The notes under the pieces are model-generated. The model worked only from the letters and a program-made list of their open reading frames with translations, was not told the DNA's origin and ran no database searches. From contig NZ_FWFL01000006.1 in NCBI RefSeq assembly GCF_900172295.1, forward strand, positions 1 through 64,000: DNA of 64,000 bases, read 5' to 3'. Of the stretch, positions 11,290 through 26,448 are shown piece after piece (the first letter of the stretch is position 1; each line of letters opens with the position of its first letter). The position numbers and the translations under genes are program-made. The DNA comes from Roseovarius litorisediminis (lineage in GTDB: Bacteria > Pseudomonadota > Alphaproteobacteria > Rhodobacterales > Rhodobacteraceae).

Positions 11290-12057
11290 TCAGAATACTG
11301 GCCAGCCTGTGGCCAGGTTAAGTTCCCGCGTTAACACCCAACCGTTTTCGCCGCGCGTCACCTGCCTGCTTAGCGTCTGCTTCCACTCCAAAGGCATTGC
11401 GCCAGCGTCTTCGATTGTCACGTCAAGCTGAACAACGCTCAGGCCAAACCGACCTTGCATTTGGCCTCTGACAACCACGACATCGCCCGAGATTTCGAAC
11501 GGCGCCCGCCAGCCGCCATTCTGATCAGACACCAGAGAAAGCGCGCCCTCGCCAATATCGAAACCATCAATCTGCGCACCCAACCATCGCGCCGTACCGT
11601 GCAGTTCGGCAATACGCCCGTCGGGATAATCAAACCTTGCATCAAAATCCCTGAAAGACAGGATGCCGCCCACCTTGGCGCCGCCCGCGATAGCGGGTAA
11701 CTGATCCAGTGCAATCTCACCTCTTGCATCGGTCAGTTGGGCGGTTCCGGTCAGCTGAGGCACTGCAAGATATCCAGAACCTTCAACCCCGGCGGCCTGA
11801 AAGCCTACTTTCCAGACCGGGCCTTGCAGTTCCAATCGCTCAAATGACCAGTCCAACGTTGTGGTTACAGGCAACCCGGGCACCTGAAATCCCGTGGCTT
11901 CGCCCCGCAGAATACCTGAGGCATCTGTCACATTTGCGGTCCATTGCGGCAAAGCCGACGGTGCAAATTTGCGTAAATGCACAACGCGGCCCTCGGTGAC
12001 TGCCACAGCACCTAACCCCAAAATCAAGCCCAGTATCACCAGCAGGAAACGCATCAT
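11290..12057 (-). CDS. gspN: Type II secretion protein GspN
   Basis: A 255-residue GspN-like protein with one N-terminal membrane anchor (residues about 4-22) and a periplasmic beta-rich domain. GspN is an accessory T2SS protein present in only some systems; its exact role is unsettled. Called from its position as the last gene after gspM and from the general TWxAxVTxxxGxLRG opening, which resembles the GspN fold. Starts in the last bases of gspM (4-bp overlap). The sequence is divergent, so the name rests partly on synteny. Confidence 0.75.
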   Translation of the reverse strand: MMRFLLVILGLILGLGAVAVTEGRVVHLRKFAPSALPQWTANVTDASGILRGEATGFQVPGLPVTTTLDWSFERLELQGPVWKVGFQAAGVEGSGYLAVPQLTGTAQLTDARGEIALDQLPAIAGGAKVGGILSFRDFDARFDYPDGRIAELHGTARWLGAQIDGFDIGEGALSLVSDQNGGWRAPFEISGDVVVVRGQMQGRFGLSVVQLDVTIEDAGAMPLEWKQTLSRQVTRGENGWVLTRELNLATGWPVF

Positions 12058-12578
12058 TGCGCAGGTACCAGATTAAGCTCAGCCGCGACAACATCCGGTT
12101 CCTTGCCGCGTTCAAAGGTGAAGGAAGTCAGATCATATCCCCAGACGCCAGCACTTGCCGTCAACCACTCTGAAATCGCTGTGAAGCGGACAGTTTCAAA
12201 CCGTAAGGTGATACCACCTGCGGCATTGTTAGCCAGCTGCGCGACATCCTTGCGCAGACCCGCCGATACCAGGCTTTCTTCGATACCACTGATGCCAACC
12301 GGCGCGCCCTGCGTCGTGGCTTTCTGACCTGTTGCCCCCTTCATCGCCATGAAAACAGCTGCCTGATCCCCAACCCAGGCCTCAACCGCCTGAGCGTCGG
12401 CGACTTCGCGACGGGCGGCGTCTCGGGCATCGGACAAGGGCAATACAACGCCATAGAACAGACCGACGGGTAGCACTGCAAATACCAGCAACAGCATCAG
12501 CCACCTCTCCCGTTGGCTTAACCCCGCCAGATACTGGATCACCCTATCCCACATGTTGGCCTCGGTCCTTCTTGTCAC
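12054..12578 (-). CDS. gspM: Type II secretion protein GspM
   Basis: Inner-membrane assembly protein (174 residues) that pairs with GspL. It has a short cytosolic N-terminus, one membrane span (residues about 25-45, ERWLMLLLVFAVLPVGLFYG) and a periplasmic ferredoxin-like domain ending in the FTFERGKEPDVVAAEL strand. Size and topology are those of GspM. It overlaps gspL and gspN by 4 bp each, so the three are translationally coupled. Confidence 0.85.
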   Translation of the reverse strand: MTRRTEANMWDRVIQYLAGLSQRERWLMLLLVFAVLPVGLFYGVVLPLSDARDAARREVADAQAVEAWVGDQAAVFMAMKGATGQKATTQGAPVGISGIEESLVSAGLRKDVAQLANNAAGGITLRFETVRFTAISEWLTASAGVWGYDLTSFTFERGKEPDVVAAELNLVPAQ

Positions 12579-13777
12579 TGTGATCCACGCCGCACCTCCA
12601 GCCCAAGCGCCAATGTCGCCCCGACACCTTCGTTCTCGCGTGTGCCCGATTGGGCGACATTCAGGTTGATCCCTGTTTCCCTGAGATTCAGAACCAACTC
12701 GTCCAGGCTGGCAAAATCTGCGACCTGAAGATCAATGAGCAAACCGCCGTTCGATTGATATCCGACACGTGTCACCCGAACGTCATCACCACTGAGAATA
12801 CCACCTGCAGCCGCCAGAACATCCAATGGCCGGTTCTCATTGCTTTTGGAGGCCTCACTTTGACGGCGATCATCCATCAGTTTGGTCACCTGCGCACGGA
12901 TATCCAGGATCGGCCCTGCTGGGATCATGGTTTCGCGCAGAATACTTTCGGCGTTGCGGCGATAAGTCAGCGCCTGTTCACGGAGCTCGCGCGTTTCCAA
13001 AATGACACTGCCAGACCAGAGCGCCAACGCCAGCAAACCCATCACCGCCGTCAAGCGGTAGGGGCGTAAGGCATTGCGAAGTGCCGCAGCATCAGCACCC
13101 GGTTCGCGCGACAGATCCAGTGACATTTCGCCATGCGCCAGCGCCAAGGGTTTTGGAAGGCCCATTGCGGCAATCTTGTCGGGGCTGTCCGCCAGCTTTA
13201 GATTCCGTTCGGATATGAAGCCATCAATTAACGGAGAATAGGCCCCCAGACGCAAGACCACGTTCGGAGGTTCAACGCGATATGCCACTTCCAACATTGA
13301 AAGCGCCAAATCGGGTTCGGCAGCAAACCCATCTTCGGGACCCAGCCGCGCGCGGATAACGCCATCCGAGGCCTCAAGCGTCCAGCACCCGACAGCTGTC
13401 GGCAAGGCCAGATAATCGGGCAAAATCGCACGGCACAAACCATCAGCCGACTTCACTTCGTCACACCAGGCCTGCCTGTCGCGTCCGGCAGCCACTAAGC
13501 CTCGGCTAGTGAGCTTTTTGGTCCCTGCCAAATCCGCAAGGCGTATTTCAGCCCCGCCCGCTGAACCACCGTAAGCATCAGTCAACTGTCGTTTTGCAAC
13601 CCGTTCGCGGGTCTGCCCTTTCAAACCAGGCGGCAAATCCAGCGGCAATAGCGGCGCATTGGCACCAGGGGCCAGGGCCACAAACTCTGACCGGGGCAAT
13701 TCGGCACCTGTGCCCAGGATATGAAACAGCGTCATATCCTTGCGTTGAGCTGTGTCAGACTTTCCAAAAAAACTCAT
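12575..13777 (-). CDS. gspL: Type II secretion protein GspL
   Basis: Bitopic inner-membrane protein whose cytosolic actin-like domain (residues about 15-225) recruits GspE. A membrane span lies near residues 240-260, followed by a periplasmic ferredoxin-like domain that contacts GspM. The 400-residue length is normal. The conserved LPDYLALP stretch near residue 120 is typical of GspL. Overlaps gspK and gspM by 4 bp. Confidence 0.88.
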   Translation of the reverse strand: MSFFGKSDTAQRKDMTLFHILGTGAELPRSEFVALAPGANAPLLPLDLPPGLKGQTRERVAKRQLTDAYGGSAGGAEIRLADLAGTKKLTSRGLVAAGRDRQAWCDEVKSADGLCRAILPDYLALPTAVGCWTLEASDGVIRARLGPEDGFAAEPDLALSMLEVAYRVEPPNVVLRLGAYSPLIDGFISERNLKLADSPDKIAAMGLPKPLALAHGEMSLDLSREPGADAAALRNALRPYRLTAVMGLLALALWSGSVILETRELREQALTYRRNAESILRETMIPAGPILDIRAQVTKLMDDRRQSEASKSNENRPLDVLAAAGGILSGDDVRVTRVGYQSNGGLLIDLQVADFASLDELVLNLRETGINLNVAQSGTRENEGVGATLALGLEVRRGSQ

Positions 13778-14700
13778 GGTAAAACCGCGGAACGATAGGT
13801 TAGTTCAGTTTTGCCAGTCAGGCTCGAACGCTCGACAATCAACTGACGTGCCGTTGTTGTATCGTCCAATTGAGCCGTAAATTCAGCCTGAAACCAATTG
13901 CTTTTTACCGACACCCCCCCCAGCGGAAAATGCGATTGCTCAATCACACGTCCATGGATCAGTTTTTCTGCCCGTTCCCGAAAATCCCCGCTGCTGGAAA
14001 ATGGCAGGCGGTCACGCTCTTCCAGCAACTTATCAAGGCCCCCGGGATTGGCTGTTGGCAACAGCGCCGCCAGAACCAGGCGCGGCGCGGTATTCATATT
14101 GATTGCACTACAGCCACTCAAAGCGCTGACATAGGGACGCAGCCGCAGATACGCTTGTTCCGTCATCCCCTGTATAAGTCGCAATTCTTCAACCGTTTGA
14201 ACCGGGCCATTCGGCGGGCGAACGGGCAATTCACGTTGCGTGTATAACTCTAAATTCACCGGCCCTCTGGCTTGTACAAACGAGGCTGTTTCACGCGCCA
14301 GTACCACAGGTACATCCAGACTGCGCAACAGTCTATCGAACGCCTGCAATGCTTGAACATCGGCCGGATCGCTTAGGCAATTGATATTGAAAAGACCTTG
14401 CAGGTCCTGAAGCTTTCCCGAGATTTGGCCGCGATCAATATCGGCCTCAAAAGTTTCTGTGGCCCAACTTTCCCTCAGGTGGTCAATGCTCTGGTCCTGC
14501 GCCCAGTCCGCCTGCAAAACCGGCTCGACCAATAACTCGGCCGCATCAAGATACAGCCCCGCCTGATCGGCAGCGCGCATCTCAAACAGGTTGGTTCGGC
14601 TGGTTTCTGCGCGCAGCATCAGCCCCGATGCCACGGCCGAAATTGCAGCGACCATCACAAGCGCATTCAAAAGAGCTATGCCGCGCTGCCCGTCCATCAA
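13774..14700 (-). CDS. gspK: Minor pseudopilin GspK
   Basis: Largest minor pseudopilin (308 residues), predicted to cap the pseudopilus tip with GspI and GspJ. The leader MMDGQRG is cut before IALLNALVMV. Glu at mature position 5 is replaced, as is normal for GspK and unlike the other pseudopilins here. The inserted alpha domain and the DLQGLFNINCLSDP segment near residue 100 are family features. Processing would be done by the gspO product. Overlaps gspJ and gspL by 4 bp. Confidence 0.92.
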   Translation of the reverse strand: MMDGQRGIALLNALVMVAAISAVASGLMLRAETSRTNLFEMRAADQAGLYLDAAELLVEPVLQADWAQDQSIDHLRESWATETFEADIDRGQISGKLQDLQGLFNINCLSDPADVQALQAFDRLLRSLDVPVVLARETASFVQARGPVNLELYTQRELPVRPPNGPVQTVEELRLIQGMTEQAYLRLRPYVSALSGCSAINMNTAPRLVLAALLPTANPGGLDKLLEERDRLPFSSSGDFRERAEKLIHGRVIEQSHFPLGGVSVKSNWFQAEFTAQLDDTTTARQLIVERSSLTGKTELTYRSAVLP

Positions 14701-15311
14701 AAACTCACCACCACTCTCAAAGCTCCGTAAAGCCTGGATTCCAAACGAATGTCCACTGCCTGGGGAAGCGGTGGAACTTCAATATCCTGGTCCAGCCCGT
14801 AATCTCTGACCCATCCCTCACTTTCGCCCGTATAGGACCTAACGTCGAGGTCAATAATGCCTTCCAGCATAACCACTTCGGGCGACAGCGCCCGAACCGC
14901 GGCAGGGCGCAGCACCGGCCAGACCTGCCGCGTCAGATACCCTTCATCGCGATCATAGCGCCAAATCACCCGGCTTTGACCTGCGGCCTGGACCCCGGGC
15001 AGCACCTGCTGACCCGTGATCGAAAAGGTAACAACCCCTTCGTTGGCCGACAAATCCATAAATGCAGGTTCAGCTTCATCGGCACCCGGGGGCATAAACT
15101 CCCTTGCGGCCGCCGCCCTCAGATCACTTCGCATGATCGTCAGGGCACGGGCCAGTTCGGCGGTTCTGTCGTCGACCTCTATCAGCCGATCCTGCGCCCG
15201 CATTGTGCCACTCAATGCCTGCAACCCCATGACGGCCACGAGCGCAAACAGCGACAGGACAACAACCAGCTCAAGAAGAGTCAGCCCCTTATCCCCTGCA
15301 CAGCCTCTCAT
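14697..15311 (-). CDS. gspJ: Minor pseudopilin GspJ
   Basis: Minor pseudopilin (204 residues). The prepilin leader ends at Gly9 and the mature protein starts LTLLELVVVLSLFALVAV, with Glu5 present. The C-terminal part is beta-rich, as in GspJ. It overlaps gspI and gspK by 4 bp. GspJ forms the tip complex with GspI and GspK. Confidence 0.92.
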   Translation of the reverse strand: MRGCAGDKGLTLLELVVVLSLFALVAVMGLQALSGTMRAQDRLIEVDDRTAELARALTIMRSDLRAAAAREFMPPGADEAEPAFMDLSANEGVVTFSITGQQVLPGVQAAGQSRVIWRYDRDEGYLTRQVWPVLRPAAVRALSPEVVMLEGIIDLDVRSYTGESEGWVRDYGLDQDIEVPPLPQAVDIRLESRLYGALRVVVSF

Positions 15312-15682
15312 CCGCCTTCTCCGGATTTCGCAATCACCACGGCCTGCCCCCCCGGCTGACCCGGCGACCGGGTGGTCACGGTTGCCTCAACAAACCCGGC
15401 GCGCGTTTCCTCTTCGTCGACGTTGATGCTCCAGCTGTAAGGGCCGTAATCGATATTCACGGGTAAGGCGCGCGCGCGCGTCATCCCAAGCAATTTGATT
15501 TCCTCGGCCCTGTTCAATGCCGCCTGTGCTGCGAAAATTCTTGCCGCCGCTCCGCCGATGTTGCGCTGTGCATGGTCGACACTTCGTAACGCAGCGACTG
15601 TTCCGATCGACAATACAAAAATGGCGATGACCAGTTCCAAAAGTGTCACACCTTTCGTACTGTTCATGCGCTCTGACATCAC
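15308..15682 (-). CDS. gspI: Minor pseudopilin GspI
   Basis: Minor pseudopilin of 124 residues. The leader ends in STKG and the mature protein starts VTLLELVIAIFVLSIG, with the conserved Glu5. The SWSINVDEEETRAGFVEATVTT region matches the GspI beta sheet. GspI starts pseudopilus assembly with GspJ and GspK. An internal ATG at residue 6 is an equally possible start. Overlaps both neighbours by 4 bp. Confidence 0.92.
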   Translation of the reverse strand: MMSERMNSTKGVTLLELVIAIFVLSIGTVAALRSVDHAQRNIGGAAARIFAAQAALNRAEEIKLLGMTRARALPVNIDYGPYSWSINVDEEETRAGFVEATVTTRSPGQPGGQAVVIAKSGEGG

Positions 15683-16170
15683 TGTCCCTCACAGCTCAGG
15701 CCAGACCAGCCTGACCCGACGCAGCGCGTCACCAGACCCGCCGAGATGAAGCTGACGTCAAAAGGGGTGGCCTGACCGTCCGGCAGAAAAACGACATCCG
15801 GTAAAAGCTCTTTTTCATCGAAATCCGCGCTTAATGGGTCCTTCAAACCCTGAAATCGCACTTCACCTCCGTATCTCTGCGCTTTGTTTACGGGTTGCCA
15901 GGGCGATTCCCCGTCATCTTTGAAATGGTACTCCAGCTCCTGAAAACCTTTCTGCCTCAGGGCCATCGCTCTGGGTTTGTGCGACATGATTGCGGCGTGG
16001 CGCAGACGATCATAGCTGGCTTTGAAACGCTGCGTATCGCTTTGGGAAGGGCCGGCAGACCGGCCAACTGAAAACACAGCCGTGATCGACAAAAGCGCAA
16101 CGACCGCAACTACAATCACAAGCTCCAGCAGGGTAAACCCCTGATCGGCTGGCGCTATTCTTCGGTCCAT
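15679..16170 (-). CDS. gspH: Minor pseudopilin GspH
   Basis: Minor pseudopilin of 163 residues linking the GspG fibre to the tip complex. The leader MDRRIAPADQG precedes FTLLELVIVVAVVALLSI, with Glu5 present. The C-terminal domain keeps the GspH pattern around residues 115-150 (DVVFLPDGQATPFDVSF). The start lies 16 bp inside the end of gspG, a longer overlap than the 4-bp overlaps further along the operon. Confidence 0.9.
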   Translation of the reverse strand: MDRRIAPADQGFTLLELVIVVAVVALLSITAVFSVGRSAGPSQSDTQRFKASYDRLRHAAIMSHKPRAMALRQKGFQELEYHFKDDGESPWQPVNKAQRYGGEVRFQGLKDPLSADFDEKELLPDVVFLPDGQATPFDVSFISAGLVTRCVGSGWSGLSCEGQ

Positions 16171-16622
16171 GTCCCGATATCCGCGTCCAGCCCGGTGCCG
16201 CCCGAAACGCCATCAGCCCCCAAGGTAAAAATATCAACCTGGTCATGTACGCCTGGCTGCAGGTATTGATAGTCATTACCCCAGGGGTCTTTGGGCAGAC
16301 GATCAATATAGCCGTTCTGCGCCCAGTTCTTTGGCACAGGTTCGGTTGTCGGCGCCTCGACCAGCGCCATCAGTCCCTGTTCGGTTGTCGGATAGCGGTA
16401 GTTGTCCAGCTTATACAGCTTGACCGCACTGTTCAGAACAGCAAGGTCCGACTTGACCCGCGCCACGCGTGCCTGGTCCGGACGGTCTATGATCCTTGGC
16501 ATGACAACAAGTGCCAAGATTGACATGATAACTACGACAACCATCAGTTCCAGCAGAGAAAATCCTTCATCTTCGCTGCTCTGCGATTGGGTCTGAAGGT
16601 TACGTGACGCATTGATTTGCAT
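16155..16622 (-). CDS. gspG: Major pseudopilin GspG
   Basis: Major pseudopilin of the secretion system. From the ATG at 16622 the protein has 155 residues. The leader is unusually long (about 20 residues) and ends EDEG before FSLLELMVVVVIMSILAL. The GspG signature follows, with NYRYPTTEQGL near residue 75 and the calcium-site C-terminus (LGADGVSGGTGLDADIGTW). GGAA lies ten bases before the chosen start; an in-frame extension to 16691 lacks a ribosome-binding site. First gene of the gspG-N operon. Confidence 0.93.
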   Translation of the reverse strand: MQINASRNLQTQSQSSEDEGFSLLELMVVVVIMSILALVVMPRIIDRPDQARVARVKSDLAVLNSAVKLYKLDNYRYPTTEQGLMALVEAPTTEPVPKNWAQNGYIDRLPKDPWGNDYQYLQPGVHDQVDIFTLGADGVSGGTGLDADIGTWTEE

Positions 16623-16737
16623 GGTAAAATCGTTCCGGAATTCATAAAGTTTTTCAGATGGAATCATATCGCACGAGCGACACTTATACAATCTCGGCGT
16701 TTGCCGGTCTGCGGCAATGCAGGGATTTTAATACGTC

Positions 16738-17484
16738 ATGACGCATCCATTACCGCTGGCTGTTTTTCTGATCCTGATCGGCCCCGCTGTCGGTTCGTTC
16801 ATGGCCCTTCTGGCCGACCGCCTTCCGTTGGGCGAAAACGTTATGACCCATCCATCGCAATGCCGGACGTGCGGTAAAGGTATTGCATGGCGCGACAAGA
16901 TACCTGTGTTTTCCTATCTGTCGCTTGGGGGAAAATGCCGCCATTGCGGTCAGGCCATTCCTGCACGGCTATTTTACGCGGAAATCACCGGTGCGGTTCT
17001 GGCAATCCTGGCTGTGTCTGTCGCCTTTGGGCCGACACACATGGTTCTGGGGGCGGCATTTTTGTGGACTCTTTTTGGATTGGCCCTGTGTGATCTCGCC
17101 GCTTTCCGTCTACCCAATGCATTGACCAGTTTGCTGTTTCTGATCGGAATGGCGCTGGTGTGGGAGGACCCCTCACGCCATATCAACCAAGGCGTTCTCG
17201 CCGCTGCCGCCGGGGCCGGTTCATTCTGGCTGATACGGATCGTCTACAAATCACTTCGCAGGCGCGAAGGGCTGGGATTGGGCGATGTCAAGTTAATGGC
17301 CGGTATCGGTGCAGCCTTGGGGATCAGCGCAATCCCGGTAGTGACGCTTGTTGCGGCCCTGCTGGCACTTTTGGTCACAGCCATAAACGCGCGGCGACAT
17401 GAGCAACCTTTGGAAGGTGAAATGGCGATCCCGTTTGGCGCTTTTTTGTCTGCGGCCGCAGCCTTGGTATTTGTGGTGGGATAA
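16738..17484 (+). CDS. gspO: Prepilin peptidase / N-methyltransferase GspO
   Basis: Inner-membrane aspartyl protease that cleaves and N-methylates the pseudopilins encoded opposite (gspG-K). Length is 248 residues with about seven spans. The cytosolic zinc loop has CRTC and CRHC near residues 41 and 65. Catalytic aspartates are in LCDLAAFRLPN (near residue 120) and GLGLGDVKLMAG (near 183). It is divergent from gspG across about 115 bp, which should carry both promoters. Confidence 0.95.
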   Translation: MTHPLPLAVFLILIGPAVGSFMALLADRLPLGENVMTHPSQCRTCGKGIAWRDKIPVFSYLSLGGKCRHCGQAIPARLFYAEITGAVLAILAVSVAFGPTHMVLGAAFLWTLFGLALCDLAAFRLPNALTSLLFLIGMALVWEDPSRHINQGVLAAAAGAGSFWLIRIVYKSLRRREGLGLGDVKLMAGIGAALGISAIPVVTLVAALLALLVTAINARRHEQPLEGEMAIPFGAFLSAAAALVFVVG

Positions 17485-17547: not shown

Positions 17548-19230
17548 CTAGGGTACGATCCAGTCACTGATCACACGGTATCCGACCCGTTCCTCAGGGG
17601 CCAACTTGGCAATGAAAGCGCCTTTGGACGCAAATCTTTGCCCAGGCCCCAGTCCCAGTTCGGGGTGTGTGCCAGGATTCAATTCATTCTCGGCCTCATG
17701 CTCGATAATTTCCATCAGATAGTCACGATGAAAATCGTTGATCGCGTGCAACAGCCCATATTGCATCATCGTCAGCGCATAATATGTCTGCAATTGGAGT
17801 CTTGGATGTGTCACATTCAGCCGACGCGTGTGCATCCAGGCGCGGATGCGATATTTCCGCGGATGGTACGAATCGGGCTTATCGTACGGCCACACAACCA
17901 GGGTTCGATCGATCAGGTCTTTCGACAATCCGGCAGCTGCTTCATCCTTGGTGGCCGATGGCAATACAATCATCTTTGAAGGCGGATTAATATCGGCCAA
18001 AGCATCCACTGCGGCCTCTGGATCATCCGGCCAAACGACAAGTACTTCGGCGTCAGCATGTTTGGCCAGTGCCGCCCGCAAACTGTCAGCATCCTCATAG
18101 GTAACCGTTTGCACATCGGTATTTTCCATCATCATCGCTACTGCGTCTGAAAGGGCATTGGCCGGGCGCTCGCCACTCGGCCCTGCGGCTCTTATCTGGA
18201 CAATCTGGTTTGGTACAGTTTCGCTGTCTGCCAGATACATTGCCAATACTTCAGCCTCAAGCGGCAAGCCCCGGTTGAAGAATACAGAATAGCCATACCG
18301 GCCTTCGCCCGGCGTAGGCAGTTCGGTATTTGGCAGGATGCAGGGCAAGCGTTTGTCATCACAGAACTTACCAATTTCATCCCAGGGTCCGGGAACCAGC
18401 CCGCCTACCGTGGCAAAAACAGGTTGCTCTGCGTATTTGGCCTCTAACTGTGCACGCCAGGTTTCGGGCGGCCCTTCCAGTTCCCACACATGCAGGTTCC
18501 AATAGCGGTAAGCCTTGATGAACTCTGACCTGTACCGGGGCGAAAACGTGGGTTTGCTGGTATCACCTTCGGTGTCTTTATTCATCCATGTCGTGAACAG
18601 GTTCATCGTGTCCAGGATTGCTTTTTTCTCGTCAGGATCCGCATCTGGTCCGATGATCGTGGCAAGGTGGATCTCTGTTTCGCCAACACCCTGTGATATT
18701 TCGGCGGAAAGTGTTTTTAGGAACGCATCCAGATTGGAAACGTCGTCCTTGGACAATTCATACCGTGGCATGATTGGATCCAGCGGGCGGCCGGCAGCAT
18801 CCAGGCCTTCTTTCAGTGCGCGCGCCAGCAAGGGCTGATCATAGGCTGGCCTGATCCGGGGTTGACGCACCCGTGCCCAGAAACCAGGAGGCTGTACTTC
18901 CTGGTAAAGCTCTTTGAACATACGATTCCGGTTGGGTGTACGCTTTTCATAAAGCACCGGCCCGATGATCGGAGGAACATAGTTGCCCCCTTCCGAGGTA
19001 CCAAAGCCACTTGGGCGGTGGCAGTTCACACAGGAAAATTGCGCGCCCGACACCGGCACGTCGCCTTGTGTCTTGCCATGCACGGGCATACCGTCCGCTC
19101 CGATACCTTCCCAATAAAGCTTGCGCCCCAACTCGGCATCACCTCCGGCGAAGGCCACCAGCGGTGTAACGGCCAATATTACGCCAGCCATCGCGCCCTG
19201 CAGGGTCGCGACCACACGGTTATGTACCAT
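17548..19230 (-). CDS. Cytochrome c fused to a periplasmic-binding-protein-like domain (ioxE-like)
   Basis: An exported 560-residue protein. A Sec signal peptide covers about residues 1-28. A cytochrome c domain has one haem site, CVNCH at 67-71. Residues from about 190 to 520 look like a type I periplasmic binding fold of the Leu/Ile/Val or receptor kind (strands ATVGGLVPGPW, VLVVWPDDPEAA, MIVLPSATKDEA). It would pass electrons in the periplasm, probably away from the oxidase upstream. Its start overlaps the stop of the SCO gene (TAATG), so the two are coupled. A similar cytochrome gene is, as I recall, part of the iodide oxidase cluster; the correspondence is unverified. Confidence 0.75.
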   Translation of the reverse strand: MVHNRVVATLQGAMAGVILAVTPLVAFAGGDAELGRKLYWEGIGADGMPVHGKTQGDVPVSGAQFSCVNCHRPSGFGTSEGGNYVPPIIGPVLYEKRTPNRNRMFKELYQEVQPPGFWARVRQPRIRPAYDQPLLARALKEGLDAAGRPLDPIMPRYELSKDDVSNLDAFLKTLSAEISQGVGETEIHLATIIGPDADPDEKKAILDTMNLFTTWMNKDTEGDTSKPTFSPRYRSEFIKAYRYWNLHVWELEGPPETWRAQLEAKYAEQPVFATVGGLVPGPWDEIGKFCDDKRLPCILPNTELPTPGEGRYGYSVFFNRGLPLEAEVLAMYLADSETVPNQIVQIRAAGPSGERPANALSDAVAMMMENTDVQTVTYEDADSLRAALAKHADAEVLVVWPDDPEAAVDALADINPPSKMIVLPSATKDEAAAGLSKDLIDRTLVVWPYDKPDSYHPRKYRIRAWMHTRRLNVTHPRLQLQTYYALTMMQYGLLHAINDFHRDYLMEIIEHEAENELNPGTHPELGLGPGQRFASKGAFIAKLAPEERVGYRVISDWIVP

Positions 19231-19997
19231 TAATTGACCTCCGGATTTACCAGTTCGGTATATTCGGCGGCAAGTTCAGCCGATGAAAGCAGGCCTTCCA
19301 AACGCAGCCACTTCGCATCAGGACCTTCACGCAGGAATGTCAGCGGCCGGTGATACATCTTGTTCTCACCTTTATATATGGCGTCAAAGGCGCGAACGAC
19401 CTGGAAAATATCGTCAAATTGTCCTGTGAGCAGCACCCAGTTGTCATGCGCGTCATGCAGTTTCGCATATTCCCGCAGCCTGCGGGGGGTATCATATTCC
19501 GGGTCGATCGAGATCGACACCATGAGATAGTTTTCGTCAATTGCCTTAAGCTCATCCTGAGTCTGCCCAAAGGTCGCACTCATCACCGGGCAAATCGTGG
19601 CGCAGCTTGTAAAAATAAAATTCAGCAGCACCGGGCCGTCATATTCCATTAATTCCGCAACATTCACCTTACGGGCGCGACTGTCGCGCAGGGTGACATC
19701 GGGCATCTCATAGGCATTGCGGCTGCGCTGATATTGAAACCCGTCCGGGCGCGCGGCCAGTTCGACTGCATTGCCATCGTCCATGCCAATATGTGTGGGC
19801 ATCCGGTGATCACTGGCGCCGTGATCATGGGCCTCCATATCGTGGCCTTCAGCGTTCTCGTGACCCATCATTGTGTGGCCATCGCCATGCGCAGAGTGGT
19901 CCATTTCGGTATCGCTTGCGGCCAGGGCAAATCCCGACGCCGCGACCATCAAGGCAAAGGCGGATACGGCGGTTGCCAAACCTTCAAAGTGTTTCAT
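19230..19997 (-). CDS. SCO1/SenC family copper protein with His-rich N-terminus (ioxD-like)
   Basis: Copper chaperone or thiol reductase of the SCO family, exported to the periplasm (255 residues). The signal peptide covers residues 1-27. A His/Met/Asp-rich linker follows (about 30-75, with many histidines), likely to bind copper. The thioredoxin-fold domain carries the ligand motif CATICP and the distal His in MYHRPLTFL. The start at 19997 is set by GGAGA seven bases before; the frame runs open further upstream without a better site. It probably loads copper into the multicopper oxidase of the same operon, inferred from family and context. Confidence 0.88.
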   Translation of the reverse strand: MKHFEGLATAVSAFALMVAASGFALAASDTEMDHSAHGDGHTMMGHENAEGHDMEAHDHGASDHRMPTHIGMDDGNAVELAARPDGFQYQRSRNAYEMPDVTLRDSRARKVNVAELMEYDGPVLLNFIFTSCATICPVMSATFGQTQDELKAIDENYLMVSISIDPEYDTPRRLREYAKLHDAHDNWVLLTGQFDDIFQVVRAFDAIYKGENKMYHRPLTFLREGPDAKWLRLEGLLSSAELAAEYTELVNPEVN

Positions 19998-20037
19998 TTC
20001 AAGTCTCCATTGAGAGAGTAATGTCTCAAAATAAGTA

Positions 20038-20063
20038 GCACCGGCAACTATTGTTGCCGGTGC
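20038..20063 (-). terminator. Intra-operon hairpin between the large oxidase subunit and the SCO gene
   Basis: GCACCGGCAAC and GTTGCCGGTGC form a perfect 11-bp stem with a 4-base loop in the 82-bp gap before the SCO gene. Read leftward it is followed by TACTTATTTTGAG, only a weak U-tract. It may protect the upstream message or partly terminate it, giving more of the first three products than of the last two. Confidence 0.6.
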
Positions 20064-20079
20064 CAATCTTATACCGGTC

Positions 20080-22044
20080 CTAGTGTACAGACCAGACGGC
20101 CACGTCGTGATGAAGCGCGTCGAACTGATACATCCGCAGACGGCGTGATGGTTCGTAGTTAAAGTTTACGATCACCTTGTGTTCGCCAATGCCTTCAGCT
20201 GTTGTGTAGCCATCCACTGGCATCATCAGACCACCCCAGGAGCTGTGCTCGTTGTTGCCACGTCCGTGAGCGTTGCCATTGTGACCACGCATGTACTTGT
20301 GGCCATGAGCCTCGGCGTAGGATGCATGCGGTGTAACAACAGGCTCTGTCGGGCGCACCGCAGGCGGCACAGGGATCGGGCCATTACCAGCGATGTTGAT
20401 CCAGAAGTAGTTGCGCCCGAAGGTGAACAATGGTCCAGCACCACCGATAGGCAGCGTGTTGTGGAAGGTGTTTTCCCATCCACGCACACCACCGAAGTCA
20501 ACCAGAACATAGGCGTGGACAAAGTAGTCGCCGTTCAGCAGTTGCACGTTCACAGTGTCACCACGGTTCAGCCACATATCGTCGGTCAGAGCGACCTGCG
20601 CTTCACCATCATGCCCACGCACCTGACCATAGATCGTGTTGTTCAGGAACAGCACGGTCATGTCCGCCCAGTCCGCCATTTCGTAACCGGTAGGAAGTTG
20701 GTTACGGTTCGACCAGTCATAGAAAGCCTGACGGATCAACGGCATCAGAACGTCCAGACTGCGCGGGTGACCTTGGCCATCGGCAATCTCTTTGAACATC
20801 CGCCACATCCGCTTGGACGGGGCCGTGTCGCCAATCATAGCGATTGCGGCCAGCTTGGCTTCTTCGCTGGCAAGCGGGTTTTCACCAAACACACCAACTT
20901 CGGCAGCGTTTCGCGGCGCACCGTTTGCAAGCGGCACATTGCGGTTCTCGACGACCTGAACGCGTGGCGGGTGAACCCTCCAGCCCCAGTGATAGCTGAG
21001 GTTCCACATGCGTGCCGGGGGCATCTTCATGTTGAGCGTGTACTGCTGGCCTTCCTCCATCGGGAAGAATGTCTGGTCAAGACCAACGTTGGGGATGTTC
21101 CGGCCCTGAAGGTTCGGGCAGGTGATCGGCCCCATCGGCGTCTGACATGTCTCGTTCGAGAAATCCAATTCATTCGGATCGTCGAACACCATCATGTAAG
21201 GCGCAAAGTCCTCGTGACCGCGATTCAGGATCTTCACGTTATAGGTGATGGTCCACTCATCGTTCTGAACGTCATCGGTGTTCAGATAGTTGGCATCGGC
21301 CTCAATGTGGCTGTCATACCAGATCTGGTTGATCACAACGTTCTTGGTCACACCATCAACTTTTTTGGTCTTCAGACCGCCAAAGTAGTGCAGGATCGGA
21401 AAGCCTTCGTATTCACGGTCTTTGAATTGACCGCTCAGAGGCACACCTTCGATGATATCGACCGCATGTTGCGCCAGACTACGTGCATTGGAAGTTCTGC
21501 CTGATTGCATCTCTTCCAGACGGTCCATGATCCAATCCAGATCATCTGTGGGCGACGTTTTATCGATTTGCGTCACCACCGGGTCGTCATGCAGGTTATA
21601 GGGGTTGTCCGGTGTCGAGGGCAGCGTATTGGGGATTGGAGTGCCCCGGCAGGTTTCTGCGTCCTCGTACTTGGTCGGAATCACGTTGGTCGGATTTGCC
21701 CCAAACGTTCCCATTGGCCCCGTGGGAGGCGGGAATATCGATGCCGCAGTATTGAGTTCGGTAATCGTTGCACCACGTACAACGTTACCATCTGCATCAA
21801 CTACCAGATTACCATCTGCATCCCTTAACGCGTTGTCCCTGCGGTTCTCGAAAGAAACGCGCGGTTGCTGGTTCGAGCCGTACTTGTCAATGCAAAGCTG
21901 GTTCAACACCGCCAGGTTCCCCGGGTTGGGGGGAACGGGCCCGAGGGTGTCAGTGTCTGCGAAAGCAGCACCCCCCCCAAGTGTGTGTACGGCTGGCAAG
22001 GCCATCACCGCAACTACTCTTATAGATTTGCGAAACATTTTCAT
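20080..22044 (-). CDS. Large exported histidine-rich protein, ioxC-like
   Basis: A 654-residue exported protein. A Sec-type signal peptide ends near residue 29. The mature N-terminus has tandem DADGN repeats near residue 75 that resemble calcium loops. A cysteine pair (ETCQTPMGPITC) lies near residue 295. Histidine-rich segments occur around NLSYHWGWRVHPP and in a tail near residues 575-605 (HGHKYMRGHNGNAHGRG); the C-terminus ends HHDVAVWSVH. I see no canonical HxH/HCH multicopper motifs, so it is not a standard oxidase. Its position between two SCO-type genes downstream of a multicopper oxidase matches ioxC, the second component required for iodide oxidase as I remember it. No catalytic function can be assigned from sequence. 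Confidence 0.65.
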   Translation of the reverse strand: MKMFRKSIRVVAVMALPAVHTLGGGAAFADTDTLGPVPPNPGNLAVLNQLCIDKYGSNQQPRVSFENRRDNALRDADGNLVVDADGNVVRGATITELNTAASIFPPPTGPMGTFGANPTNVIPTKYEDAETCRGTPIPNTLPSTPDNPYNLHDDPVVTQIDKTSPTDDLDWIMDRLEEMQSGRTSNARSLAQHAVDIIEGVPLSGQFKDREYEGFPILHYFGGLKTKKVDGVTKNVVINQIWYDSHIEADANYLNTDDVQNDEWTITYNVKILNRGHEDFAPYMMVFDDPNELDFSNETCQTPMGPITCPNLQGRNIPNVGLDQTFFPMEEGQQYTLNMKMPPARMWNLSYHWGWRVHPPRVQVVENRNVPLANGAPRNAAEVGVFGENPLASEEAKLAAIAMIGDTAPSKRMWRMFKEIADGQGHPRSLDVLMPLIRQAFYDWSNRNQLPTGYEMADWADMTVLFLNNTIYGQVRGHDGEAQVALTDDMWLNRGDTVNVQLLNGDYFVHAYVLVDFGGVRGWENTFHNTLPIGGAGPLFTFGRNYFWINIAGNGPIPVPPAVRPTEPVVTPHASYAEAHGHKYMRGHNGNAHGRGNNEHSSWGGLMMPVDGYTTAEGIGEHKVIVNFNYEPSRRLRMYQFDALHHDVAVWSVH

Positions 22045-22098
22045 TTTCTCCGTTTCAATGCTGTGCTGGTTCCCCGGTGTCTCCCGGGGTCCAGAAAC

Positions 22099-22884
22099 TC
22101 AGACTTCGCGGTTGTGATTGCGGGTGTCGTTCATATCGAACACACGAGGTCCGGCGCGACGCATCTTGCCATCAACTGGCAATTCTTGCGGCATCACCCA
22201 GGACACACGGCTCGCAGCGTCATCCGCCTGGATGCCGTGCGGGAAGGCGCCCCAAAGACCGGCAGCGCCGTTACCGTAAAACACAACATCGACCTTACGC
22301 TTGCCCGGAAGGGTGCTGTGACCCATCCGATACATCCGGAAGGCAAGGTCCGCGCAATGCTGTTTGGTCCCTGTCAGGAACTGCCAGCCCTTGGGGGCGT
22401 TCAGTTCTTTGGCATAGGCCGACAGACGCGAGGGTGTGTCATGTTCGGGATCACGTGTAATCGAATAGACCTGCACATCACGGCCAACTTTGTCGCCAAG
22501 CTCGGCCACAACATCGCCCACGAAGCGGGTGATCGGGAAATGTTCTTCATCCCGAAGGCTCATGAAATGCATCATGACAACCTTGTTCTCGATAAAGCCC
22601 TCGTAGAACGACATGCCCAGACCGTCATGATTGACCATCATGACATTTGGAAACGCGTCGCGCATCGAGGTGTCGATCACCCCACCACTATTGATAGGAT
22701 TACATACCACCGGCAGATCATTGGGGCCGATAGCTTTTTGCGCAGCGAGACGGTTTGCTGCAGCTTGCTGCGCCGCGAGACGTTCGGCAGCAGCCCTTTC
22801 GGACGAACTGCCCGCTGTGGTCGAAAAGCCCACCGCCGCGGCAGCGACCGGAATTCCGGTCAGGAATTGACGTCTATTTGTCAT
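22099..22884 (-). CDS. SCO-like protein without the CxxxC copper site, TAT-exported (ioxB-like)
   Basis: A 261-residue protein of the SCO/thioredoxin fold. A TAT signal starts it (NRRQFLTG, then an Ala-rich hydrophobic stretch). A short AERLAAQ-type coiled segment follows, then the thioredoxin-like domain with the family pattern VQVYSITRDPEHDTPSRL. Where SCO proteins have TSCATICP this one reads FMSLRDEEHFP, so both copper cysteines are missing, and the distal His is not evident. It therefore is unlikely to be an ordinary copper chaperone. It may be a TAT escort or structural partner for the neighbouring oxidase. Gaps of 45 and 55 bp to its neighbours indicate one operon. Confidence 0.75.
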   Translation of the reverse strand: MTNRRQFLTGIPVAAAAVGFSTTAGSSSERAAAERLAAQQAAANRLAAQKAIGPNDLPVVCNPINSGGVIDTSMRDAFPNVMMVNHDGLGMSFYEGFIENKVVMMHFMSLRDEEHFPITRFVGDVVAELGDKVGRDVQVYSITRDPEHDTPSRLSAYAKELNAPKGWQFLTGTKQHCADLAFRMYRMGHSTLPGKRKVDVVFYGNGAAGLWGAFPHGIQADDAASRVSWVMPQELPVDGKMRRAGPRVFDMNDTRNHNREV

Positions 22885-22929
22885 CTTAATATCCTCTCTT
22901 TCTCAGAGATTTCCTTGAACGGTGGAAAA

Positions 22930-24837
22930 TCAGTCGCCCTGACCGACCGGGACGATATCCCAACGGATCATCATGGCGTGGTCTTCGTGCACAACGTTGT
23001 GACAGTGCATCACGTGTTTGCCGAAGAAATCGCGCCAGCGGCTAAAGAATGTCACCTCGTCTCCGGGCCCAAGCGAGACCACGTCTTTACGCGACGTCTC
23101 AAACGGGCTTGGCGGACGACCATTGACCTCAAGGATCTGGAACTCTTCAAAGTGCGTGTGAACCGGGTGCGCCCAGTTTGAACCCTCGTTGCGGAAAGTC
23201 CAGATTTCGGCAGAACCCTGCTCAATCTTGACGTCCACACGGTTGGGATCCATCAAGCGGCCGTTAACTGTCCAAAGACCGTTGTCATAGTCAAAGACAA
23301 AAAGACGCTTACGGCGAACTTCCGACATGCGGATTTTCGGCAGTTTGCGCATTTTGGCCGGAACTTTTGACGGGTCAGCAACTTCACCGGGTTTACAGTT
23401 GAACTGAATAACCGGCATCAGATTATCACCTTCCAGCGTGTAACCCGTCGGGCCAGCGCCATCGGGACGGATCTCCATCTGGTTCATGACCTGAATCTTG
23501 TCGCCCTCTGCATACTTCGAAAAGTCGACAATGACGTCATTCCGGTTTGCAACCCAGATTTCCAGCATCGGTTCTTGGATCGGCTCTTCAAGCAGGTTGC
23601 CGTCGTTCGAAAGAACGGTCCAGTCGTCGAAATACGGATCGCTGCCATCCGCCGGTACAATTCTAAGCACCAGTTGATACAGACGCGAGGGGCCACCGTT
23701 CAGGAAGCGGAAGCGGTACTTGCGGCGATCCACATCCAGATAGGGCTGAATGATCCGGTTAACAGTAATTTTGTCACCGGTCATGCCGTTCGTGGTGTAT
23801 TGACGACGCAGCGGTTCGAAGGTGTCAGGACGACCGTCAAGGTTACCAACATCGTGCGGAGCTTTGGTCGCCGGAGAGGGTGTAAAGAAGTCCCAGATCA
23901 CCTGACCTTCCGGTGTGAACTGCACGTCGTGCATGATCAGCGGAATGTCATAATCGCCCGATGGCAGGTTGAAGGCCAGCGGGTTGGGATCGGTCTCATC
24001 GCCCGAGTCACGCTCGTCGAAGATCAGATAGAAGCCTGAGAAACCCGCATACACGTTGGTCGCGGTGAAATCCAGACGGTGGTCGTGGTACCACAGCGTG
24101 TTCATGATCTCGCGGTTATGCGGCCCATGCCCATTCGGCGAACCCGCCGGGAAGTTGGCATAGTGATGATCCCAGAATTCACCAGGGTTGAAAAAGTCCT
24201 GCGGGATACCATCTGATTCAGACGCGGTATGCGCGTTGTGCAGGTGGATCGTGGGCGACGGCAGTGCAAAGTTCACATGGCCAGAGCCAACCGGCGGAAG
24301 CTCGTTGTTGCGACGCAGGAAGACCGGCTCGCCATAACGTGCATGATACGTTTCGCCCGGGGTGATGCCGTTGAAACCCCAATGCCAGGAACCAACGTTC
24401 GGGTCACCACCCTTGCCGACGACACCAGGTGTGCCATCGCCATACGGGGGCTGCCAGTGATACTTCCAGCGGAATTCTCCCAGCACCTCTTCGTAGTATT
24501 TCTGAGGCGGGAAATCGTCGAACCGCTGGTGACGCGCCGGCTCAACTGGATCACCGTACAAAAAATCCGGTTCACCCGTCGCTGGGTTGATGTCAAGCGG
24601 CTGTGCAACCGGCATAATGTTGAGTGGTGCCGTAAACGGCTCAACAGCAGGGCTTGGTGACGCCTTGATGCTCGGTTCAAAGTTGTCAGGGAAAACAAGG
24701 CCCGATTGCGTGGGGTTTGTGCCCCACTGGTCGATAATCTCCCTGTTGTCATCAACAACATCTGCACCGGCCTGGCTGGCCACTAGGCCAGCACCAGCAG
24801 TGCCCAAGCCTAGTTTTAATGCTTCTCTTCGTTTCAT
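22930..24837 (-). CDS. TAT-exported multicopper oxidase, iodide-oxidase-like (ioxA-like)
   Basis: A 635-residue multicopper oxidase that would couple one-electron substrate oxidation to reduction of O2 to water. The TAT signal is KRREALKLGLG. All four copper-binding motifs are present: HLHNAH (about 198-203), WYHDH (248-252), HPVHTH (556-561) and HCHNVVHEDHAMM (about 611-623), with the type 1 axial Met. The start at 24837 is fixed by GGAGG seven bases upstream. The long, CotA/bilirubin-oxidase-like architecture and the operon order point to an iodide-oxidase-type enzyme. Phenol or Mn(II) oxidation are alternatives. First gene of the five-gene operon. Confidence 0.88.
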   Translation of the reverse strand: MKRREALKLGLGTAGAGLVASQAGADVVDDNREIIDQWGTNPTQSGLVFPDNFEPSIKASPSPAVEPFTAPLNIMPVAQPLDINPATGEPDFLYGDPVEPARHQRFDDFPPQKYYEEVLGEFRWKYHWQPPYGDGTPGVVGKGGDPNVGSWHWGFNGITPGETYHARYGEPVFLRRNNELPPVGSGHVNFALPSPTIHLHNAHTASESDGIPQDFFNPGEFWDHHYANFPAGSPNGHGPHNREIMNTLWYHDHRLDFTATNVYAGFSGFYLIFDERDSGDETDPNPLAFNLPSGDYDIPLIMHDVQFTPEGQVIWDFFTPSPATKAPHDVGNLDGRPDTFEPLRRQYTTNGMTGDKITVNRIIQPYLDVDRRKYRFRFLNGGPSRLYQLVLRIVPADGSDPYFDDWTVLSNDGNLLEEPIQEPMLEIWVANRNDVIVDFSKYAEGDKIQVMNQMEIRPDGAGPTGYTLEGDNLMPVIQFNCKPGEVADPSKVPAKMRKLPKIRMSEVRRKRLFVFDYDNGLWTVNGRLMDPNRVDVKIEQGSAEIWTFRNEGSNWAHPVHTHFEEFQILEVNGRPPSPFETSRKDVVSLGPGDEVTFFSRWRDFFGKHVMHCHNVVHEDHAMMIRWDIVPVGQGD

Positions 24838-25509
24838 GCTTAGTCCTCCAGCAGAAAAAGCTCGCGAAAATAGTTTCAATAGTACGCCAAACATGGCGCG
24901 ACGGGTAACGCGCCACGAGTGCCGCGAGTCAGGAAGGCCCAAACGGACCTCAAGATAGAAGAAGTCAAAAGACCTCTTTAGGTTTCGGGTTCAGTACCCG
25001 ATGACTATGTGATGTCAGGCCGATGAGTTGAGTAATGTGGTTGGCCCGGGCGGATCTGTGATACGCCAATTTTTTAAAATGCTCTGGGGGTAAACACCCC
25101 ATACCATGCACAACGGCAGCATGGCCTTGCCATTAGTTCCCCAGTTGGAAAACCGGTGTTGTGGCCGGTCAACTAACGCTTTTGATCACAACATGAAAAA
25201 CTCCGTATAACAATCATAACTTTATCGTGATCTGGCGAAATACTTCTTTTTTCACCGCTGATAAAAACCGATATCCAGTTAAAACCCTGAATTCAAATAT
25301 TTTTAAAAGTTCTTCCCTAGCGTAAACAAATATTCACTTGGTTGATCCGGGATGTTTCAACCCCCAAAAATCGTTAACAAATGTAGGGCTTATGCGAACA
25401 ATCTCTGCTTTTTTCGGGCAATGTTTTCCAAAAATACACAACAGATAGCAGCGCCGTGATCGACTCGAATTAGACAACAACCGCAGGCAGGCAAGAAAAT
25501 GGCCTGCAC
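24838..25509. promoter_or_regulatory. Long AT-rich leader region upstream of the oxidase operon
   Basis: About 670 bp without a supportable gene between gspC and the multicopper oxidase, both transcribed leftward. It is clearly AT-richer than its flanks in its right half (25200-25480). A small hairpin GGGGT-AAAC-ACCCC lies near 25088-25101. It must hold the oxidase operon promoter and a long 5-prime leader or regulator sites. I cannot place the promoter. Confidence 0.5.
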
Positions 25510-26448
25510 TCAACCCCTGCCTGATACTTTCACGTTGATTGTCTGGCGCTGCCCACCGCGCAAAATCTCGACCACAAACTTGTCTGCGCTGCTCAGAATT
25601 GTGCTTGCGTTTTCCAACGTATCAAGATCGCCAACAGAATACCCATTGACCCTCAAAACCAAGTCTCCCCTGCGTAGTCCGATGAGATCGTAAAGCTGCC
25701 CTTCGCGCACCCACAGAATTTCGGGAAACTTGTCGCCATTGCCCCCGCGCGGCGCAACCATACGGACACTTCCGGCACGCCCCAGCACCCTGCGCATATC
25801 ACGGCCGGAAAATGCTGAAATGGGAACTTCCGCAGTTTTCGGCTTCAAGGGATCGGATGACACCAGGCGCGAATATGTCTCGGCGGGCGTCTCCTCAAAG
25901 CCCACCACCTCTTTGGCGCCGTCTTTTTCGATCCAGACCCCTTCGGCATCTATGCCGCGAACAACCTCTCCACCGGGCAAGGTATCACCAACACTGACAA
26001 GGGCATTGCCCTGTGAGGAGGTGACCATTGCCCACGCTTGGTCGCCTCCGGCCATCAGCCCTAGCAGTTCGTAATTCTCACTTGGCTTGGGCGCGGCGGC
26101 AGTTACGGTTTGGTTCGGCGTGAAAACCCCAAATATCGGCGGCCAACCACGAGCATCGTCCGGCAGATCACTGTCACCAGCGGCACTATTACCCTGCTCG
26201 AGTACAATCGGGGCAACCCGACGCAAATCAGATGCCGTCAGTGTCAACGCAAGCTGCCCAGTGCCATATCCCAATGCGATGGCCGCCAGAAACGTCATGC
26301 TGCCCGATCGCCACGCCATATCAGCCAACCGAAACACTGCCATGGAAACAAGCTGCGCCGGACGTTCCCAAAAATATTCTTTCAGTCGGCAAAACAGGTA
26401 ACTCCAGTCGAAAAAAAAGACGTGACCACGTGAAAAGGCACTCAACAC
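25510..26448 (-). CDS. gspC: Type II secretion protein GspC
   Basis: Inner-membrane connector that binds the secretin and helps select substrates. From the upstream GTG at 26448 it has 312 residues. It has a cytosolic N-terminus, one membrane span near residues 50-70, the periplasmic homology region (YELLGLMAGGDQAWAMV, near 128) and a C-terminal PDZ domain (LYDLIGLRRGDLVLRVNGYS, near 258). The real start may be an internal ATG at 26343; neither has a good ribosome-binding site. It is separated from the other gsp genes by the whole oxidase operon. Confidence 0.88.
   Translation of the reverse strand: MLSAFSRGHVFFFDWSYLFCRLKEYFWERPAQLVSMAVFRLADMAWRSGSMTFLAAIALGYGTGQLALTLTASDLRRVAPIVLEQGNSAAGDSDLPDDARGWPPIFGVFTPNQTVTAAAPKPSENYELLGLMAGGDQAWAMVTSSQGNALVSVGDTLPGGEVVRGIDAEGVWIEKDGAKEVVGFEETPAETYSRLVSSDPLKPKTAEVPISAFSGRDMRRVLGRAGSVRMVAPRGGNGDKFPEILWVREGQLYDLIGLRRGDLVLRVNGYSVGDLDTLENASTILSSADKFVVEILRGGQRQTINVKVSGRG

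What the first reader, a model, noticed from the sequence alone, without database searches (positions are those of the whole stretch)
17548..24837. Five-gene redox operon that looks like an iodide oxidase (iox) cluster
Seen: a TAT multicopper oxidase with all four copper motifs, then an SCO-like protein, a 654-residue exported histidine-rich protein, a canonical SCO protein and a cytochrome c, in one leftward operon. Known, from memory: iodide-oxidising alphaproteobacteria carry ioxA (multicopper oxidase), ioxB (SCO), ioxC (large second component), ioxD (SCO) and further cytochrome genes in that order. Inference: this organism may oxidise iodide to I2, possibly as an antimicrobial weapon.
Basis: partly seen in the sequence, partly recalled or inferred. 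Interest (0 to 1): 0.75.

Follow-up and report, generated by a model that had tools for sequence, protein, structure and literature searches.

The report
Iodide oxidase operon in Roseovarius
A bacterium of the Roseovarius group carries the genes for a secreted copper enzyme that turns iodide into iodine, set between the genes of the export machine that probably carries it out of the cell and behind a conserved stretch that is probably regulatory RNA.

Summary
All five products match those of Roseovarius sp. A-2, whose iodide oxidase is characterised, in the same order (A 74%, B 72%, C 59%, D 69%, E 71% identity), and those of strain Q-1 (60/41/38/40/40%). In a tree IoxA falls in a clade with A-2 and R. 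mucosus, far from CueO and FtsP. Beyond the finding: (1) The operon lies inside a type II secretion cluster. Of 84 genomes of the genus, the 14 with (nearly) full-length IoxA all have its GspG; 65 of the other 70 have no GspG match. A review calls the role of these genes unclear. (2) An ioxA leader of about 340 nt is conserved and covaries, is found in the same 14 genomes (plus one weak, chance-like hit) and has no Rfam match: probably a cis-regulatory RNA. (3) A-B-C-D-E order holds in 40 of 53 named loci, two Nitrosomonas included. Corrections: the 'cytochrome c' is a cytochrome c plus binding-protein-fold fusion; IoxB lacks the SCO copper cysteines; the 654-residue protein is not unusually histidine-rich. 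Iodide oxidation by this strain is inferred.

The parts
22930..24837 (-). ioxA: TAT-type exported multicopper oxidase, catalytic subunit of iodide oxidase
   Evidence: 74% to Roseovarius sp. A-2, 60% to Q-1; all four copper motifs
22099..22884 (-). ioxB: SCO-fold protein with a TAT-like signal (TAT_signal_seq 13.9 of 16.7 bits), without copper-binding CxxxC
   Evidence: SCO1-SenC 29.3 bits; no CxxxC in 46 of 46 aligned rows
20080..22044 (-). ioxC: exported second subunit of iodide oxidase, no Pfam family; weak cupredoxin-like fold match
19230..20003 (-). ioxD: SCO copper chaperone with CxxxC and conserved His (ATG start at 19997)
17548..19230 (-). ioxE: cytochrome c stretch joined to a type-1 periplasmic-binding-protein fold
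24855..25184 (-). ioxA leader: conserved, covarying, hairpin-rich, probably transcribed; model core 24966-25070 with invariant ACATTACTCA loop
25185..25230 (-). conserved promoter-like region: TCACG..GTTA box 25208-25230 that ends in a -35-like TTGTTA (25208-25213), and -10-like TGTGAT 25185-25190
   Evidence: read by eye from the alignment, start site not mapped
25510..26448 (-). gspC, type II secretion
16738..17484 (+). gspO prepilin peptidase
   Evidence: Peptidase_A24
13774..16691 (-). gspG, H, I, J, K pseudopilins
11290..13777 (-). gspL (12575-13777), gspM (12054-12578) and a gspN-like gene (11290-12057, named by position only)
   Evidence: for L and M; no family match for 11290-12057
5690..10286 (-). 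gspD secretin (8346-10286), gspE ATPase (6892-8343), gspF (5690-6895)

Best explanation
This is the iodide oxidase (iox) operon of a Roseovarius species, set inside a type II secretion cluster. IoxA is translocated folded by Tat, IoxC, D and E by Sec; IoxD (canonical SCO), and perhaps IoxB and IoxE, supply and reduce copper for IoxA in the periplasm; IoxA and IoxC form the enzyme, which the Gsp machine exports. Outside, the type-1 copper of IoxA takes electrons from iodide and passes them to O2 at the trinuclear centre (4 I- + O2 + 4 H+ -> 2 I2 + 2 H2O). Transcription probably starts about 340 nt upstream of ioxA, and the structured leader probably regulates the operon, possibly by copper or iodide supply. 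Shown here: orthology, order, conserved ligands, linkage to secretion genes, conserved leader. Inferred: activity in this strain, export route, copper-loading roles, start site, leader function.
For: Gene-by-gene matches in the same order to the A-2 and Q-1 loci. IoxA in a 14-row clade (100/100) with A-2 and R. mucosus DSM 17069; R. mucosus forms triiodide in culture (PMC7696734, passages) and carries the same locus (L018). IoxA and IoxC were both found in the enzymes of Q-1 and A-2 (PMC9415286, passages). All copper ligands conserved. Secretion genes flank the operon on both sides here and in the 12 other Roseovarius-type loci whose DNA reaches both sides. In 84 genus genomes GspG is found in 14 of 14 with (nearly) full-length IoxA and in 5 of 70 without. 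The leader is found in the same 14.
Against: No activity data for this strain. In 29 of the 39 named loci that are not of the Roseovarius type no match to the gsp proteins tabulated was seen within the DNA held (at most 10 kb each side, many contigs short, and only the window's proteins were used), and G045 and G089 of the same genus carry a variant A-E cluster with a longer IoxA and no GspG match: type II secretion is not tied to every iox cluster. The co-occurrence may be one shared island, not independent events. IoxF, the third SCO of Iodidimonas, is missing. The Pfam scores in IoxE are under cut-off.
Confidence: 0.88

Rival explanations
1. The enzyme is an IoxA-family multicopper oxidase whose main natural substrate is not iodide but phenolics, Mn(II) or another donor; iodide oxidation is a side activity.
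For: Purified IOX also oxidises ABTS, syringaldazine, 2,6-dimethoxyphenol and others (PMC9415286, passages). The family reaches methanotrophs, Nitrosomonas, Acidobacteriota and Nitrospirota, where no iodide oxidation is known to me.
Against: Reported catalytic efficiency for iodide is 2-5 orders above fungal laccases (PMC5928188, passages); the window IoxA is inside the clade with A-2 and R. mucosus.
Confidence: 0.1
2. The gsp genes next to iox are a general type II system and do not export IOX.
For: Four genus genomes (G003, G042, G084, G094) have a more divergent type II system without iox (GspG 62-66%), so such systems have other cargo; a review says it is unclear whether gsp genes are needed (PMC9415286).
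Against: 14 of 14 IoxA genomes have GspG, 65 of 70 others have no match; the operon sits between gspC and gspO; in the three divergent systems seen at length (G042, G084, G003) the gspC-like piece lies beside gspD and other ORFs stand next to gspO.
Confidence: 0.15
3. The conserved leader is not an RNA element but a DNA-level regulatory region, a translated leader, or chance conservation near the start of ioxA.
For: The MFE z-score of the leader (mean -2.3, 8 loci) is no better than that of a coding control (mean -2.34); the coding control also shows some excess of double changes; the helix with the invariant loop never covaries. ORFs beginning MLPL or MLSL recur in 10 of 13 loci, though they start inside the promoter-like box and then diverge.
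Against: 13 of 39 pairs have changes on both sides against 5.4 in shuffles; RNAalifold energy -64.2 against -28.0 and -14.2 for the coding controls; the hairpins lie downstream of the promoter-like sites; an independent copy (G005, not in the model) scores 88.6 bits.
Confidence: 0.25

Closest known systems
iox cluster of Roseovarius sp. A-2 (L027; enzyme paper Shiroyama et al. 2015 not read, known from PMC9415286 passages and reference lists)
   Same: All five genes in the same order, 59-74% identity; same gspC / gspO-GHIJKLMN surroundings; same leader (92.6 bits)
   Different: Sequence divergence only; no difference found in the gene content of the operon
iox cluster of strain Q-1 (L064, BAYV01000013) and Iodidimonas muriae (L038)
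   Same: A-B-C-D-E in order, 38-60% identity; gspE- and gspF-like genes nearby
   Different: A sixth gene, an SCO-like ORF (ioxF by position), follows ioxE and is absent here; gsp genes arranged otherwise; no strong leader match (best 15.1 bits in L038, far from ioxA)
iox-like operons of Nitrosomonas sp. Nm51 (L050) and SJ634 (L057), Methylobacter, Methylocystis sp. Sn-Cys, Novosphingobium sediminis
   Same: A-B-C-D-E in order
   Different: IoxA 55-58%; no match to the gsp proteins tabulated but one weak GspG hit in L057; no strong leader match; function not tested as far as PMC12335899 tells for Nitrosomonas
Bilirubin oxidase / CotA / CueO multicopper oxidases
   Same: Same superfamily and copper motifs
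   Different: Far under the CueO cut-off; CueO and FtsP outside the iox rows
Rhodobacter capsulatus cutFOG (PMC9973294, abstract and outline)
   Same: Alphaproteobacterial multicopper oxidase with RNA structure upstream that controls it by copper
   Different: That system needs translated CutF; no conserved small ORF downstream of the promoter-like site was evident in the iox leader

Membership tests
iodide oxidase (iox) cluster | Multicopper oxidase with four copper motifs, similar over nearly full length to IoxA of Q-1 and A-2 | tested here: met
   (60% and 74%), for the motifs
iodide oxidase (iox) cluster | IoxC second subunit encoded in the same cluster | tested here: met
   38% to Q-1 (3-654), 59% to A-2 (2-654)
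iodide oxidase (iox) cluster | Gene order A-B-C-D with SCO proteins B and D, then E | tested here: met
   the name E is by position after D
iodide oxidase (iox) cluster | Sixth gene ioxF (SCO), as in Iodidimonas | tested here: not met
   none after ioxE here; A-2 too has gspO there, so it is not shared by all characterised members
iodide oxidase (iox) cluster | Groups with characterised IoxA proteins in a tree | tested here: met
   14-row clade 100/100 with A-2 and R. mucosus; outgroups were only CueO, part of FtsP and one own paralogue, on long branches
iodide oxidase (iox) cluster | Extracellular O2-dependent oxidation of iodide to I2 | not testable with these tools
   needs culture or purified enzyme
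type II secretion system | Secretin, ATPase, inner-membrane protein, pseudopilins G-K, prepilin peptidase, C, L, M | tested here: met
   GspD, G, J, K above their NCBIfam cut-offs, GspE, F, H, I, C below but matched; L, M and the peptidase by Pfam; GspN not confirmed
CueO, PhsA, FtsP, CopA families | Score above the curated family cut-off | tested here: not met
   PhsA 131 of 950, CueO 123 of 525, FtsP 78 of 581, CopA 17 of 479 bits
manganese oxidases (MoxA, MnxG, CumA; names recalled) | Closer to a Mn oxidase than to IoxA | not tested
   no Mn oxidase sequence was fetched
SCO copper chaperones | CxxxC and distal His | tested here: met
   for IoxD, 46 of 46 rows; IoxB fails it in 46 of 46 rows and is SCO-like only by its Pfam match
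cupredoxin fold (for IoxC) | Clear structural match | tested here: inconclusive
known RNA families (Rfam 15) | Match to any of 4227 families in the leader | tested here: not met
   window 24700-25600, E up to 5: only CRISPR-DR10 at 25354-25431, 15.7 of 39 bits, outside the leader

The most novel reading that the evidence does not exclude
The ioxA leader is a new class of cis-regulatory RNA that senses a halide (iodide) or copper supply and gates expression of an extracellular iodine-producing enzyme; the invariant ACAUUACUCA loop would be part of its binding site.
Probability: 0.08. Interest if true: 0.9.

Novelty: new member of a known kind. Interest (0 to 1): 0.5.

Why it matters
Bacterial iodide oxidation feeds the iodine cycle and makes a biocide. 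The review I read in part calls it unclear whether gsp genes are needed for secretion, and a 2025 paper says it is not known whether Nitrosomonas holds the whole operon. The linkage in the genus bears on the first; the second is answered for two Nitrosomonas genomes, where A-E are all present. The leader, if confirmed, gives a handle on how iodide oxidation is regulated.

Tried and rejected
IoxC by sequence: no Pfam family in any of 73 members, no credible PDB relative, no profile similarity to IoxA, so the idea that it is a degenerate copy of IoxA has no sequence support. Structure gives only weak, middling cupredoxin-like matches.

Leader by folding energy: z -3.1 for the window, but over 8 loci no better than a coding control, so energy was dropped as an argument. 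Covariation was compared with a coding control, where an excess is smaller but not absent. A translated leader of the CutF kind: ORFs starting MLPL/MLSL recur in 10 of 13 loci, but start in the promoter-like box and diverge. Leader elsewhere: three hits of 25.0-25.5 bits (G054, G214, G406); all lie over ORFs and lack the invariant loop (G054's ORF looks like an enoyl-CoA hydratase by eye), so they were taken as chance.

Foreign origin by G+C: operon 55.2%, 4-kb blocks of the window 53.8-59.8%, no signal. Empty-site test: the methyltransferase-like flank adjoins the locus in the 14 IoxA genomes but the tested gene on the other side does not, so it was not pursued. I first took G092 for a fifteenth complete case; one search shows that only the last 143 residues of ioxE stand beside gspO there, with unrelated DNA in front, so it is counted among the genomes without IoxA.
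Full report
What is there. Five genes on the minus strand between 17548 and 24837 form a tight unit. In order: IoxA, a 635-residue multicopper oxidase with an RR signal; IoxB, SCO-like; IoxC, 654 residues with no Pfam match; IoxD, SCO; IoxE, 560 residues. The last protein is a cytochrome c stretch (CVNCH, conserved Met154) joined to a type-1 periplasmic-binding-protein fold (AlphaFold2 mean pLDDT 87.1; the best PDB matches are ABC-transporter substrate-binding proteins, E 4e-14, TM by query 0.48); both Pfam matches there are under their cut-offs. IoxC is no richer in histidine than IoxA. IoxB has no CxxxC at the SCO site in any of 46 aligned rows, while IoxD has it in 46 of 46 (of six loci whose ioxB and ioxD hits fell on one place, four were dropped from the B set and two from the D set).

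Is it iox? The collection of named genomes gave 53 loci with an IoxC relative, among them Roseovarius sp. A-2 (L027) and strain Q-1 (L064, BAYV01000013; the Q-1 genome paper PMC4082002, whole text, gives accession BAYV00000000). Identity to A-2 for A, B, C, D, E is 74, 72, 59, 69, 71%, to Q-1 60, 41, 38, 40, 40%, to R. mucosus DSM 17069 77, 74, 59, 68, 70% (B and D of Q-1 matched over part of their length, 70-248 and 29-253). The review of Iodidimonas (PMC9415286, passages only) says that the enzymes of Q-1 and A-2 contain IoxA and IoxC and that the cluster is ioxA-F. R. mucosus DSM 17069 forms triiodide in culture (PMC7696734, passages). The 2012 AEM paper on Q-1 was not held. In a maximum-likelihood tree of 48 rows the window IoxA pairs with a Roseovarius MAG (100/99) inside a 14-row clade (100/100) that holds A-2 and R. 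mucosus; Q-1 and I. muriae lie in a five-row clade beside it (the fork that joins them has 94/79); CueO, part of FtsP and an own paralogue are outside on long branches. Search scores agree: A-2 IoxA 1104 bits, bilirubin oxidase 189, CueO family 123 against a cut-off of 525.

Organism. Genomes in the window's genus have contigs of exactly the length of named records: R. mucosus, R. marisflavi, R. lutimaris, R. gaetbuli, Roseovarius sp. 217 and A-2. The window's genome therefore belongs to the same GTDB genus as these; this is an inference from lengths.

The secretion system. The operon is enclosed by gspC (25510-26448) on one side and gspO, G, H, I, J, K, L, M, D, E, F on the other. Of 84 genus genomes, own included, 14 have full-length or nearly full-length IoxA at 76-100% (43 have some multicopper oxidase match). 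GspG is found in 19: those 14, plus G092, G042, G084, G003, G094 (in G066 the matched stretch holds two stops). GspD agrees for 13 of the 14 over nearly full length, with only end fragments in G074. G092, a 72% complete genome, has only the last 143 residues of ioxE beside gspO, with unrelated DNA in front of it: a reduced locus or a misassembly. G065, 73% complete, has ioxE, two ioxA fragments, gspE and pieces of gspD and gspF but no GspG match. G042, G084 and G003 have a divergent system, with a gspC-like piece next to gspD and other ORFs by gspO; G094 was seen on a short contig only. Fisher's test on 14/14 against 5/70 gives p = 4e-12, but the genomes are related and the island may have one origin. 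The review calls the role of gsp genes unclear. In the held library 'iodide oxidase' with 'type II secretion' found 0 papers, and Roseovarius, iodide and type II secretion 1 paper, on iodate reduction (listing only). A Tat-then-Gsp route fits a folded copper enzyme (general knowledge of these systems). Against it as a rule: G045 and G089 carry a variant A-E cluster, with IoxA ORFs of 946 and 945 residues and IoxC ORFs of 834 and 841, and no GspG match; and of the 39 named loci that are not of the Roseovarius type 29 showed no match to the gsp proteins tabulated.

The leader. The 672-base gap between gspC and ioxA holds a promoter-like region (25185-25230) followed by about 340 bases up to ioxA. 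An alignment of 13 loci shows conserved hairpins, one with an invariant loop ACATTACTCA. RNAalifold finds 62 pairs, 18 with double changes. For six helices (39 pairs) drawn from it, 13 pairs and 26 cells have changes on both sides against 5.4 and 6.9 in shuffles, none of 500 as high; sliding the partners drops pairing from 95% to under 50%. The structure was derived from this alignment, which leans in its favour. In a like-for-like run the leader gives 17 of 51 pairs with double changes (7.3 in shuffles) and consensus energy -64.2; two stretches of coding ioxB give 10 of 47 (6.0) and 6 of 34 (3.2), at -28.0 and -14.2. So the signal is stronger than in the control, but shuffles overstate it. 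Single-sequence folding energy does not separate leader from control (8 of 13 loci). A further hairpin just behind the core folds in each of the 13 sequences, with differing stems. A covariance model of the core, built from the 13, finds the leader in the 14 IoxA genomes, once each, G005 being independent of the model (88.6 bits); among the other 70 it has one hit of 25.5 bits, over an ORF. Of the 53 named loci 12 match strongly, all used in the model; the other 41, some of them cut before the place where it would lie, give nothing above 15.1 bits. In a family sample of 394 genomes there is own plus two hits near 25 bits. The search of over 40 genomes uses stricter filters. Rfam has no match in the leader. 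A library search pairing iodide-oxidation with riboswitch and noncoding RNA terms held 1,210 papers; none of the 8 shown is about iodide (listing only), and 'iodide' with 'riboswitch' held 145, none of the 10 shown about iodide sensing (listing only). This does not prove that nothing is in print.

How widespread. A-B-C-D-E in order on one strand, partial hits counted, holds in 40 of 53 named loci. Of the 13 others ten touch a contig edge (two of these, L060 and L061, also show no D or E behind C), one is rearranged (L030), one has C before A (L036, a short contig), one shows only A and C (L054). The 40 include Nitrosomonas sp. Nm51 and SJ634, Methylobacter, Methylocystis, Methyloglobulus and Novosphingobium. 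[quoted passage not shown] in these two it is. Within the family the cluster is rare: IoxC in 2 of 394 sampled genomes, own included.

Mechanism. Inference from the families: Tat carries folded IoxA, IoxD delivers copper, IoxE and the ligand-less IoxB perhaps assist loading or electron supply, IoxA with IoxC leaves through Gsp, and iodide is oxidised with O2 outside. IoxC's role stays open; the structural hint of a cupredoxin-like sandwich is weak.

Noticed in passing
window 24855-25184 (model core 24966-25070), minus strand: Conserved covarying leader of ioxA with an invariant ACATTACTCA loop and no Rfam match; found in the 14 IoxA genomes of the genus.
   Followed up: yes
L069:2160-10517 and L070:7444-15811 (G045, G089): Variant A-E cluster in the same genus: IoxA of 945-946 residues with about 210 residues between copper motifs 3 and 4 (54 in the window), larger IoxC, no type II GspG match.
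   Followed up: partly
L087 (G065) 8307-16723: A reduced locus: gspD and gspF pieces, gspE, a gspC-like piece, ioxE and two ioxA fragments; no match to B, C, D or the pseudopilin genes. Genome 73% complete, so assembly error is possible.
   Followed up: partly
L072 (G092) 1-4813: The last 143 residues of ioxE beside gspO-GHIJ, with unrelated DNA in front: rearrangement or misassembly.
   Followed up: partly
L066:7985-9268, L068:542-4317 and 7538-8872: Near gspO in type II systems without iox, exported ORFs of about 400-440 residues that look alike by eye (GxxCxGxxC near the N terminus): perhaps another cargo.
   Followed up: no
L050:7122-14338 and L057:7052-14293: A-B-C-D-E operon complete in two Nitrosomonas genomes.
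   Followed up: partly
L030:10001-18149 (Ferruginivarius sediminum): Order C-D-E-A-B; searches list two IoxC and two IoxA homologues from a contig of the same length, which suggests a tandem duplication.
   Followed up: no
window 26604-27701: Methyltransferase-like gene (by eye, no Pfam hit) next to the locus in the IoxA genomes of the genus; the copy in G074 holds four stops.
   Followed up: partly
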